Shown in pieces: positions 22,333 through 25,300 of a stretch of 64,000 nucleotides of DNA (within the stretch, counting starts at the first letter, position 1; every line of letters begins with the position of its first letter). The position numbers and the translations under genes are program-made. Source of the DNA: Cristatella mucedo. Lineage: Eukaryota > Bryozoa > Phylactolaemata > Cristatellidae. The stretch is taken from assembly GCA_009760855.2 (NCBI GenBank), contig WPIO01000091.1, positions 496,001-560,000 of the forward strand, written 5' to 3'. Below the pieces are notes generated by a model. It was not told the DNA's origin, ran no database searches, and saw only the letters and a list, made by a program, of their open reading frames with translations.

Positions 22333-25300
22333 CTGTAAATCAAAATTCCTGACAACTTTATGCCATAGATAGCTTGCTTGAAAGTTTATACTTGTTAGGA
22401 AAGAGAACCAAATAAATTGTTTATAAATTAAATACCAAACAGTATTACCAAAATTAAACACAATTCGTATTGCTGATCATGATTACTGCAACATTGGCTC
22501 TGCTCGTATTTTTAAAACGATACCACTTTTTTCAAAACGTCTGCTCCTGCAACCCAGAACATGAACCAAATGTATGCGAATAACTTGGAAGTAGCCGAAG
22601 AATTATCCCGCCCGGTGATTCGGAAGTGGCTAGCGAAGAATTAAAATTATAGCTGGGAAGAAGACATATATTCTTCACCAGAAAGTGGCCAGTGCGGCAT
22701 ATTTATCAGTAAGAGTGCACCAAAAGTAGACCCGCTGGTTTAGGTATCCTGCTGCACATGAAGAAGTGTGACTTTTTATTGCTTTGAATGTAAAAATATC
22801 CCTAAATATGAAGTCTTATAGCCATCCACAGTAGGCTAAGCGAAGGCGAGTACCAGATGAGCTTAAGCAAAGATTTATACAAACCTATAACTTATGAGTA
22901 AATTTATTAATTACGATCGCATCCTCATGTCACTTATTTAGCAAGGAGATGCATTGTGAGACATGCCAATTTTGAGCGGCTCTGTCCCTTAGCCTAATGT
23001 TAAGGTATTTGCTAATCACATCGAATGTCGTGGGTTAAAGTCCTGCAGCACTTTATCTTTTACTTTCCAGTGTGAGCGTATTTATTGCAGATAACATTCT
23101 GCTGCCTCTCCATAAATGAACCTCTTCAGTCTACCTAAATTTCTCTCACTCAAACTAGTACTTGTTCAGGGAAACAGGTTGACAATAGCGTGAGAGCTCA
23201 GGTGACCAACAGCTTGTCTCATTCCCAAGCCTTAGTGTTAGTTAGTTTTTTTTTCAACAGATATTTATTCTCACCTGTTGATAAAAGTCAGTGTAATATC
23301 TGCTGTTCAGTTGGTTCCAATAAAAATTGAATTATTTACCGCAAGTATTTCTCAATTGGTATTCACTCGACAACTAAATTCCCCGGCCTCACGACGTGAT
23401 CAGATCCTTAGGTTGGCAGAAAGTGGCTAGATCAGATCATTGAGGGGCTGAAGTGGCTGAAGAAGGACATCAATGAAGAAGCCAAAGATGCCTAAAGATC
23501 CGCAAATGCTGTCAGGCTTCATCCGGGTCTGAGTCAGACACACTGCATCCAGCTGTATTAGACTTCCTACCCATTGTCTAGCCAAATTGCATGCTAAAGG
23601 CATGCTTAGAATAAAAATCCTTATACTAATTCCACATAAATACCATATAAATTTGCTATAAGTGGCAGAATAACAAAGCAGTAGCACAAATCTGGGCTAC
23701 AGCTGTCTTGCATCCCTGGGGCCAAACCTTAAGAGTTATGCCTCAAGTGGGAATCGTCTCCAGAACCTCCAAATTGCCAGTGCTTTCTAGTATTCCGCCA
23801 TTCAAACTACTGAGACCACTCGTCATTCAGAGGTCAGCACAGGATTTTGAATATTTAAGCAGCCACTAACGCGAACGAGCTGAATTTCGGTGTGAGTGAA
23901 TCAGTGCAAATCCCTACTATACAGGCAATCATAATAGTTAATATCAGCATATCATATAGCACAGTGGTTCTCAAACTTCCTAATGCCCCGACTGTTTAAT
24001 ACAGTTCCTCATGTTGTTACGACCCCAAACATAAAATTATTGTCTCCAAAATGTGGAAATTCGTGTTTTCTGTTGCTCTTAAGCGTCCGTGTGAAAGGGT
24101 CATTCAACCCTCAAAGGGGTCGTGACCCACAAGTTGAGAAACGCTATAATATAGCGCTATACGCTCAATTTCTTTCTTACTATTTACTGGTGCTCGAAAA
24201 GGAATCCAGTTTTGATTTGTGGAGATCTTTAAAATGGCAGTTGATAATGAGTTTCCCGCTTTTAAGAATAGAAGGGAAATAACTGCATCCAAAAGATTGT
24301 AAGTTCTACGGATTTAAGTTCTACAGATGGGTATAACAAAAGTCAGACGAGAGAGATTTACGATGAGAAACCTGAGAAATGACCATAGCAGATAGGTACA
24401 GCAGAGCAAAACAATGGGAGAAAGAGCAAGCTCGCTAAGCTGGTCGATACGCTTTTAGATTGGGAGCCAGTGGATGGACGCACAGAGTAGTGTAATTCTG
24501 CAGGTAGGTCTTTAACCACAGAAAGGTCTGGATGCCAAGTTTGGGAGCATCAGTAAGTTTCTTAGTTCACCGGCAGAATTACCCGCAAATAGAACATCTT
24601 ATAAAAATTTAAGAGTTATATAGCCATTTGAAAAACTAGCTTAGTGCCGTTTCTTTATCTAAGAAACCCTACATCTTGCAACGATATGTAATCAAATAAC
24701 TATGAGACATGATAGCAAATTTTGATTTTTTGTATCTGGAGAAAGGTTGCCTTTGAGTAGGACACCTAGATTAGTTCCAGGATTACTGGACTCATTGCAG
24801 TGTACTAACGTTTGCAAGGTTCGCAGTGCCCATTTTGAAAGCAGAGCTTGGGCGTGAAAAATTCCAAAGGTAGATTATTCTTACAATCAAGCCCAGCAAC
24901 TAACAGTAGATTCTTTTGCTGAGAGTCTGAATAATTATTATACAAAATTACTCCATAACCTGTAAATTAAATTTCTAAAGACGCTATCTTGCGTACATGT
25001 TTATTGGATTTTTTCTCATTGCTTCCTGCCGAGGCAAAGACCCTTCTTAGTTTTAGACAAACACACCTTAATCTTATTACCCAATCAAATTGACTCTCAG
25101 TACAATACTTTTCTAGTTTATTGATTAGAGAAAATTAAGTGTCTGAGTTACAAGTAAAACCACTCAAGATTAGAAGGGCAGACACATCAGATCCCCATGG
25201 GAAATCTGGAATTATGCAGACTAAAAACTCCTAACTGCATGTTTTAATCGTATTTCCTACCTCTTTTTATTGTTAGCATTTTTTTTAATGTGGAGAACTG

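What the first reader, a model, noticed from the sequence alone, without database searches (positions are those of the whole stretch)
23962..24146. SPIN-like hAT transposon in an invertebrate-looking intron
Both ends and the inner ~90 and ~70 bp closely resemble the SPIN/URR hAT elements known from tetrapods. SPIN is a textbook case of horizontal transfer between vertebrates and a few invertebrates. The match is far better than expected for a neutral non-coding element inherited vertically since the animal phyla split.
Basis: partly seen in the sequence, partly recalled or inferred. Interest (0 to 1): 0.8.

Follow-up and report, generated by a model that had tools for sequence, protein, structure and literature searches.

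The report
Vertebrate-type SPIN transposon in an invertebrate
A short jumping-DNA relic best known from reptiles, frogs and mammals sits in an intron of an invertebrate animal and belongs to a large family of copies there, which is best explained by the jumping gene having crossed between very distant animal lineages.

Summary
Window 23962-24146 is a 185-bp non-autonomous hAT element, 86% identical (159/185) to the SPIN/URR1 sequence, which I recalled from memory. The window's own genome (572 Mb) carries a large family: 1,793 first-look candidates, 40 scored, all 40 matching; 3 copies in 200 kb of evenly spaced DNA, so roughly 1,800-25,000 in all. The majority consensus of 40 copies (39 fetched plus the window's) matches the recalled sequence at 165 of 167 arm positions. 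At the 20 arm positions where the window copy departs from that consensus, the recalled sequence agrees with the consensus each time, so it was not read off the window. Copies are flanked by 8-bp duplications (at least 6/8 in 28 of 39; shifted control 3 of 390) centred on nnnTAnnn, the Buster/SPIN-type target. The 39 copies lie on 29 contigs, and the mitochondrion uses an invertebrate code, so vertebrate contamination or a local chimera is excluded. Near-identity of a non-coding element across phyla, with copies about 6-9% diverged, means horizontal transfer. SPIN in invertebrates is already in print (Rhodnius, Biomphalaria); what may be new is the host, which could not be named. No autonomous SPIN partner was identified.

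The parts
23962..24146 (-). Non-autonomous SPIN-family hAT element (MITE), 185 bp; in the usual SPIN orientation it reads on the minus strand
   Evidence: 86% (159/185) to recalled SPIN/URR1; 88.0% to the 187-bp consensus of this genome's family
24063..24146 (-). 5' arm of the element (SPIN orientation; inner border approximate), terminus TAGCGTTTCTCAACTTGTGGGTC... (consensus CAGCGGTTCTCAACCTGTGGGTC...)
23962..24043 (-). 3' arm of the element (SPIN orientation; inner border approximate), ending ...GAGAACCACTG; includes the 21-base exact match AACATGAGGAACTGTATTAAA
24044..24062 (-). Short centre, which differs from the recalled URR1 centre and marks this genome's own deletion derivative
23954..23961 (+). 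Candidate target-site duplication, left copy ATATAGCA (T and A at positions 4-5)
24149..24156 (+). Candidate target-site duplication, right copy ATATAGCG (7/8; two extra bases lie between it and the element end)
   Evidence: chance 0.0046 for at least 7/8 at any of 7 offsets
25841..26021 (-). Inferred exon of the host TRPM gene upstream (in gene order) of the element
   Evidence: open frame with AG acceptor and GT donor by eye; no family hit of its own above cut-off
21904..22332 (-). Inferred last coding exon of the host TRPM gene (ends in a stop codon)
   Evidence: open frame with AG acceptor by eye; no TRPM hit of its own
58954..59328 (-). Open frame holding a TRPM exon (TRPM2-like domain)
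   Evidence: Pfam PF25508 E 9.4e-7; PDB TRPM1 at E 0.06 for a 62-aa piece, no PDB match for the whole frame at E 0.1
56353..56748 (-). Open frame holding a TRPM exon (TRPM2-like domain)
   Evidence: Pfam PF25508 E 6.9e-10
48967..49353 (-). Open frame holding the TRPM pore-region exon
   Evidence: PDB TRPM3 E 1.9e-8, clearly diverged; no Pfam match above cut-off
46847..47074 (-). Open frame holding the TRPM S6 exon
   Evidence: PDB TRPM5 E 2.5e-6; Pfam Ion_trans below cut-off

Best explanation
The stretch is one old, mutated copy of a non-autonomous SPIN (SPACE INVADERS, Buster-type hAT) transposon. A SPIN element entered the ancestor of this invertebrate horizontally. An internally deleted derivative of about 187 bp kept both transposase-recognised ends and was moved by cut-and-paste with a SPIN transposase supplied in trans, inserting at nnnTAnnn sites with 8-bp duplications and reaching very roughly thousands of copies; one insertion landed in a TRPM intron. 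Copies have since decayed independently, and this one is more decayed (12% from consensus) than the 39 fetched ones (6% on average). Shown: match of ends and arms, duplications, copy abundance, star-like decay, native location. Inferred: supply of transposase in trans, horizontal entry and its single origin. Not known: direction, donor, date in years, host species.
For: 86% identity of the window copy to recalled SPIN/URR1, 0 of 500 shuffles as good. Own genome: 40 of 40 scored places match (itself and 39 others at 83-86% to this copy), out of 1,793 first-look candidates. Consensus of 40 copies (39 fetched plus the window's): 178/187 to recalled SPIN overall and 165/167 in the arms; the recalled sequence sides with the consensus at 20 of 20 arm positions where the window copy differs. 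Duplications at least 6/8 in 28 of 39 copies (4 exact) against 3 of 390 shifted controls; in the left copy T at position 4 in 32 of 39 and A at position 5 in 35 of 39, as in nnnTAnnn of TcBuster, whose hAT subfamily also holds SPIN (PMC3499496, passages). Flanks are unrelated (26% mean ungapped pairwise identity, chance level) while the first 60 bp of the elements are 82% alike. 3 copies in 20 evenly spaced 10-kb stretches, K2P 0.067, 0.081, 0.090 to consensus. Few shared variants: 9 sites with a second base at 12% or more among 43 copies, 5 of them CpG.
Against: The 39 copies are those scoring best against the window copy, so their divergence is biased. The window's own duplication is 7/8 with a 2-base offset, and 11 of 39 copies have under 6/8. 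No autonomous SPIN element was identified: the one intact hAT that I read has other termini.
Confidence: 0.93

Rival explanations
1. Vertebrate contamination or a chimeric contig: the SPIN copy comes from vertebrate DNA in the assembly.
For: SPIN is best known from tetrapods (recalled; PMC11614815 passages name opossums, squirrel monkeys and bats).
Against: 39 fetched copies lie on 29 contigs, seven of them over 10 Mb long, and 3 lie in 20 evenly spaced stretches; the flanking gene is a diverged TRPM; the mitochondrial contig, tied to the assembly by a 96-97% identical copy in contig C166, is not vertebrate by code; the family's central segment differs from the recalled URR1 centre.
Confidence: 0.01
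2. An old invertebrate hAT family inherited vertically from the bilaterian ancestor, resembling SPIN by shared ancestry only.
For: hAT elements of this type are widespread in animals (recalled) and share the terminus: recalled MER5A ends share 17 bp and exceed their own shuffles.
Against: 165/167 arm identity in non-coding sequence while copies within this genome are already 6-9% diverged from their consensus; vertical inheritance over more than 500 My would have erased it.
Confidence: 0.02
3. A different but sister hAT family (for example OC1 or another Buster-type element) that also moves horizontally, rather than SPIN itself.
For: Only one SPIN reference was used, from memory; OC1, hAT1 and ET also moved between vertebrates and Rhodnius (PMC11614815 passages). 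OC1 was not compared here.
Against: Both arms match over 167 positions at 99%, including non-terminal sequence; TA-centred duplications fit Buster/SPIN.
Confidence: 0.04

Closest known systems
SPIN / URR1 non-autonomous elements (SPIN_NA families, Buster-type hAT) of tetrapods
   Same: Both ends, 5' arm of 85 bp and 3' arm of about 82 bp (165/167 to recalled sequence), 8-bp TA-centred duplications, short non-autonomous form
   Different: About 40 bp shorter than the recalled URR1 form, with its own central junction; host is an invertebrate
SPIN-like hAT of the snail Biomphalaria glabrata (about 1,000 copies; PMC5440852, passages)
   Same: SPIN-like hAT at high copy number in an invertebrate
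   Different: Sequence not available here for comparison; this host's 21-kb mitochondrion is unlike the compact 13.6-kb type given for heterobranch snails (PMC11488289 passage); copy number here may be higher (rough range 1,800-25,000)
SPIN_NA_12/13_RP of Rhodnius prolixus (PMC11614815, passages)
   Same: Horizontally acquired non-autonomous SPIN in an invertebrate
   Different: Other host by mitochondrial gene order (arthropod order recalled); sequence not available here

Membership tests
SPIN (Buster-type hAT) | Terminal inverted repeats CAGNGGTTCTCAA... | tested here: met
   23962-23974 CAGTGGTTCTCAA and 24134-24146 TTGAGAAACGCTA; consensus CAGCGGTTCTCAACC...GAGAACCACTG
SPIN (Buster-type hAT) | Sequence identity of the subterminal arms to SPIN, beyond the shared hAT terminus | tested here: met
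   165/167 arm positions for the family consensus, 159/185 for the window copy, against a recalled reference
SPIN (Buster-type hAT) | 8-bp target duplication of type nnnTAnnn | tested here: met
   28 of 39 at least 6/8 vs 3 of 390 shifted; left copy T4 32/39, A5 35/39; nnnTAnnn for TcBuster and SPIN's place in the Buster subfamily from PMC3499496 passages
SPIN (Buster-type hAT) | Duplication flanking the window copy itself | tested here: inconclusive
   ATATAGCA/ATATAGCG, 7/8 but with 2 bases between element end and right copy
SPIN (Buster-type hAT) | Autonomous partner with SPIN transposase in the genome | tested here: inconclusive
   PF05699 search: 138 matches, 150 scored of 766 candidates; only one place (C222) was read and it is another hAT
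SPIN (Buster-type hAT) | Best match in Dfam/Repbase is a SPIN entry | not testable with these tools
   No animal repeat library held
MER5A/Charlie-type hAT (control) | Identity beyond the terminus | tested here: not met
   Recalled MER5A ends: 17 exact terminal bases (blastn E 0.002) and one weak nhmmer match (E 0.069); local scores 18 and 18 (own shuffles at most 16.5 and 16) against 99 for SPIN

The most novel reading that the evidence does not exclude
SPIN invaded an invertebrate lineage in which it has not been reported (by mitochondrial code and gene block a mollusc- or lophophorate-like lophotrochozoan that is neither Rhodnius nor a pulmonate snail) and amplified there to several thousand copies, so the SPIN wave reached further beyond land vertebrates and their known parasites and snail intermediate hosts than the published cases show.
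Probability: 0.5. Interest if true: 0.62.

Novelty: new member of a known kind. Interest (0 to 1): 0.5.

Why it matters
SPIN is a model case for horizontal transposon transfer across phyla, and the proposed routes (parasites, intermediate hosts) rest on few invertebrate hosts. A further invertebrate genome with a large, datable SPIN family gives another point for testing routes, timing and direction, and a star-like family of presumably neutral copies gives the date of invasion once a substitution rate for the host is known.

Tried and rejected
Rejected: vertebrate contamination or chimera. Rejected: generic hAT resemblance (MER5A control with recalled ends; the shared terminus alone does exceed shuffles). 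Rejected: a structured RNA; Rfam gives nothing at gathering scores in the window, and one sub-threshold snoRNA match at E 1.8 over the element.

Led nowhere: exact-pattern scans of viral contigs (2) and bacterial/archaeal genomes (2) and distant blastn of phages and plasmids, no match, as expected of collections without animals. Paper searches for printed SPIN sequence fragments, 10 fragments in 2 searches, no paper. Look-ups of three SPIN papers by id (PMC2579371, PMC3004126, PMC3350315): none held. Passages of PMC3621081, PMC5791352 and PMC3513734 named no further invertebrate SPIN host. Search for mollusc haemocyanin (PF14830) in the own genome: no match, but no control genome rang either, so it does not exclude a mollusc. 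tRNA scan of two mitochondrial pieces: none found, with a bacterial setting. Attempt to name the host: the mitochondrial contig is 21,008 bp, the same length as Chaetoderma nitidulum EF211990 (PMC4189740 and PMC11488289, passages), but its order (cox1 on the same strand as the nad1-nad6-cob-nad4L-nad4-nad5 block, cox2 not next to cox1) does not fit what is described there for caudofoveates, so I treat the length as coincidence; no sequence comparison was possible. A search for genome papers with 572 Mb or a 21.01-kb mitochondrion listed 3 insect papers, none fitting both (listing only). The intact hAT that dominates the PF05699 list is, in the one copy read, a different family (termini TAGGGCTGTACC, duplication ATAATAAT), not the SPIN partner.

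Full report
What is there. Window 23962-24146 reads, on the minus strand, as a 185-bp element with the ends and inner arms of SPIN. Aligned with the SPIN/URR1 sequence that I recalled from memory, 159 of 185 aligned bases are identical (86%), with about 40 bp of the recalled centre missing; a scan of the whole window gives this place E 8e-30 and the next E 0.039, and none of 500 dinucleotide-preserving shuffles comes near (best 18 against 99). As a control I used recalled ends of MER5A, another hAT: they score 18 each, above their own shuffles (at most 16.5 and 16) because the terminus is shared (17 exact bases), but far below SPIN. There is no second copy in the window.

The recalled reference and a check on it. 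No animal repeat library was available, and I had seen the window before typing the reference, so its letters could have been coloured by the window. The genome provided a blind check. The reference was typed; 39 further copies were fetched afterwards and a majority consensus (187 bp; those 39 plus the window copy) was computed. In the arms (first 85 and last 82 positions) the consensus equals the recalled sequence at 165 of 167 positions, and at the 20 arm positions where the window copy departs from the consensus, the recalled sequence agrees with the consensus 20 times and with the window 0 times. The reference was therefore not read off the window. Over the full length the figure is 178 of 187, so 7 of the 9 differences lie in the centre.

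Family anatomy in the own genome. The window is C678:496001-560000 of a 572-Mb assembly in 688 contigs. The first look found 1,793 candidates, of which 40 were scored and all 40 matched, the 39 others at 83-86% to the window copy. The 39 lie on 29 contigs. Copies end sharply: flanks are unrelated (mean ungapped pairwise identity 26%), while the first 60 bp of the elements are 82% alike. Eight-base duplications of at least 6/8 flank 28 of the 39 copies (4 exact; 11 have fewer), against 3 of 390 shifted controls; in the left copy T stands at position 4 in 32 of 39 and A at position 5 in 35 of 39. This is the nnnTAnnn target reported for TcBuster, in the hAT subfamily that also holds SPIN (PMC3499496, passages). 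The window copy has ATATAGCA on the left and ATATAGCG on the right, two bases beyond the element end (chance 0.0046 in the test).

Copy number and age. In 20 stretches of 10 kb taken at even steps from four long contigs (200 kb, GC 46.7%) there are 3 copies, about 15 per Mb, or some 8,600 in the genome with a Poisson range of 1,800 to 25,000. These three are 93.6%, 92.4% and 91.6% identical to the consensus without gaps (K2P 0.067, 0.081, 0.090), or 93.1%, 92.4% and 90.2% by blastn with gaps. The 39 fetched copies, chosen because they score best against the window copy, average 94.2% (K2P 0.061), and the window copy is 88.0% (K2P 0.130). Among 43 copies only 9 sites have a second base at 12% or more, 5 of them CpG sites, as expected of one burst followed by independent decay. 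With an assumed neutral rate of 2-4 per billion sites per year (not measured here) a distance of 0.08 would be 20-40 My.

Host. The gene around the element is a TRPM channel on the minus strand: Pfam TRPM2-like domain in the frames 58954-59328 and 56353-56748, and PDB TRPM matches for 48967-49353 and 46847-47074 at E 1.9e-8 and 2.5e-6; a 62-aa piece of the first frame matches TRPM1 at E 0.06 and the whole frame nothing at E 0.1. These are too diverged for a vertebrate TRPM orthologue (my judgement from the alignments). The two exons nearest the element (25841-26021 and 21904-22332) are inferred from open frames and splice sites alone and have no TRPM match of their own. The mitochondrial contig C688 (21,008 bp) has genes that are open under code 5 and broken under the vertebrate code 2; Pfam names 9 of the 10 frames given, rrnL comes from Rfam, and nad6, nad4L and cox2 are named by place and look. 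A copy in contig C166 at 96-97% identity ties it to the assembly. The run nad1-nad6-cob-nad4L-nad4-nad5 on one strand resembles the block described as ancestral for molluscs and near relatives (PMC4189740 and PMC11488289, passages; the detailed order is partly recalled), while the rest is rearranged. I could not name the phylum. The 21-kb size is not that of the compact heterobranch (pulmonate) mitogenomes (PMC11488289 passage), so Biomphalaria or Lymnaea are unlikely hosts; code 5 alone would allow an arthropod, and only the gene order speaks against it (recalled).

Why horizontal. A non-coding element whose copies in one genome have already drifted 6-9% from their consensus cannot keep 165 of 167 positions in common with a vertebrate element by descent through more than 500 My. 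Contamination is excluded because copies lie on 29 contigs, up to 24.8 Mb long, and in 3 of 20 evenly spaced stretches.

How it works. Shown: ends, arms, target duplications, high copy number and star-like decay. Inferred: the short form lacks a transposase and was moved by one supplied in trans. A search for hAT dimerisation domains lists 138 matches, with 150 scored of 766 candidates; by my count 62 of the 138 are a near-uniform set (73.5-78 bits) with no stop in the domain. One of that set was read (3.7 kb): it is another hAT, with a 640-aa open frame, termini TAGGGCTGTACC and duplication ATAATAAT, and no significant match to the SPIN consensus. The other matches were not read, so a decayed SPIN transposase may be among them.

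What is known. SPIN and relatives in Rhodnius (PMC11614815, passages) and a SPIN-like hAT with about 1,000 copies in Biomphalaria glabrata (PMC5440852, passages) are in print; Lymnaea stagnalis is recalled from Gilbert et al. 2010, which is not held, nor are the 2008 and 2012 SPIN papers. Hence the kind is known and the finding is a further host.

Noticed in passing
own genome, C222:7449901-7453600 (L077) and about 60 other places: A young-looking, apparently intact Ac-like hAT (class by look): 640-aa open frame, 12-bp termini TAGGGCTGTACC, perfect 8-bp duplication in the one copy read; 62 of 138 PF05699 matches are near-uniform (73.5-78 bits) with no stop in the domain.
   Followed up: partly
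window 35084-46024: Several partial copies of a non-LTR retrotransposon with reverse transcriptase (best frame 41642-43204 minus, Pfam RVT_1 E 8.2e-32), 72-94% alike over one 300-base block.
   Followed up: no
own genome, C688 (L054-L056): 21,008-bp mitochondrial contig with tandem and inverted copies of a roughly 2.1-kb stretch (also between nad1 and nad3) and rearranged gene order; same length as Chaetoderma nitidulum EF211990 but other order.
   Followed up: partly
window 11815-11941: Degenerate array of a TTTAGGG-like 7-base unit, telomere-like by look.
   Followed up: no
window 4003-4089, 61877-61963: Dispersed short repeat (91% alike) that by look resembles the 3' tail of the retrotransposon copies.
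   Followed up: no
window against own genome sample: The window's GC (41.65%) is lower than the 46.7% of 20 evenly spaced 10-kb stretches from four long contigs.
   Followed up: no
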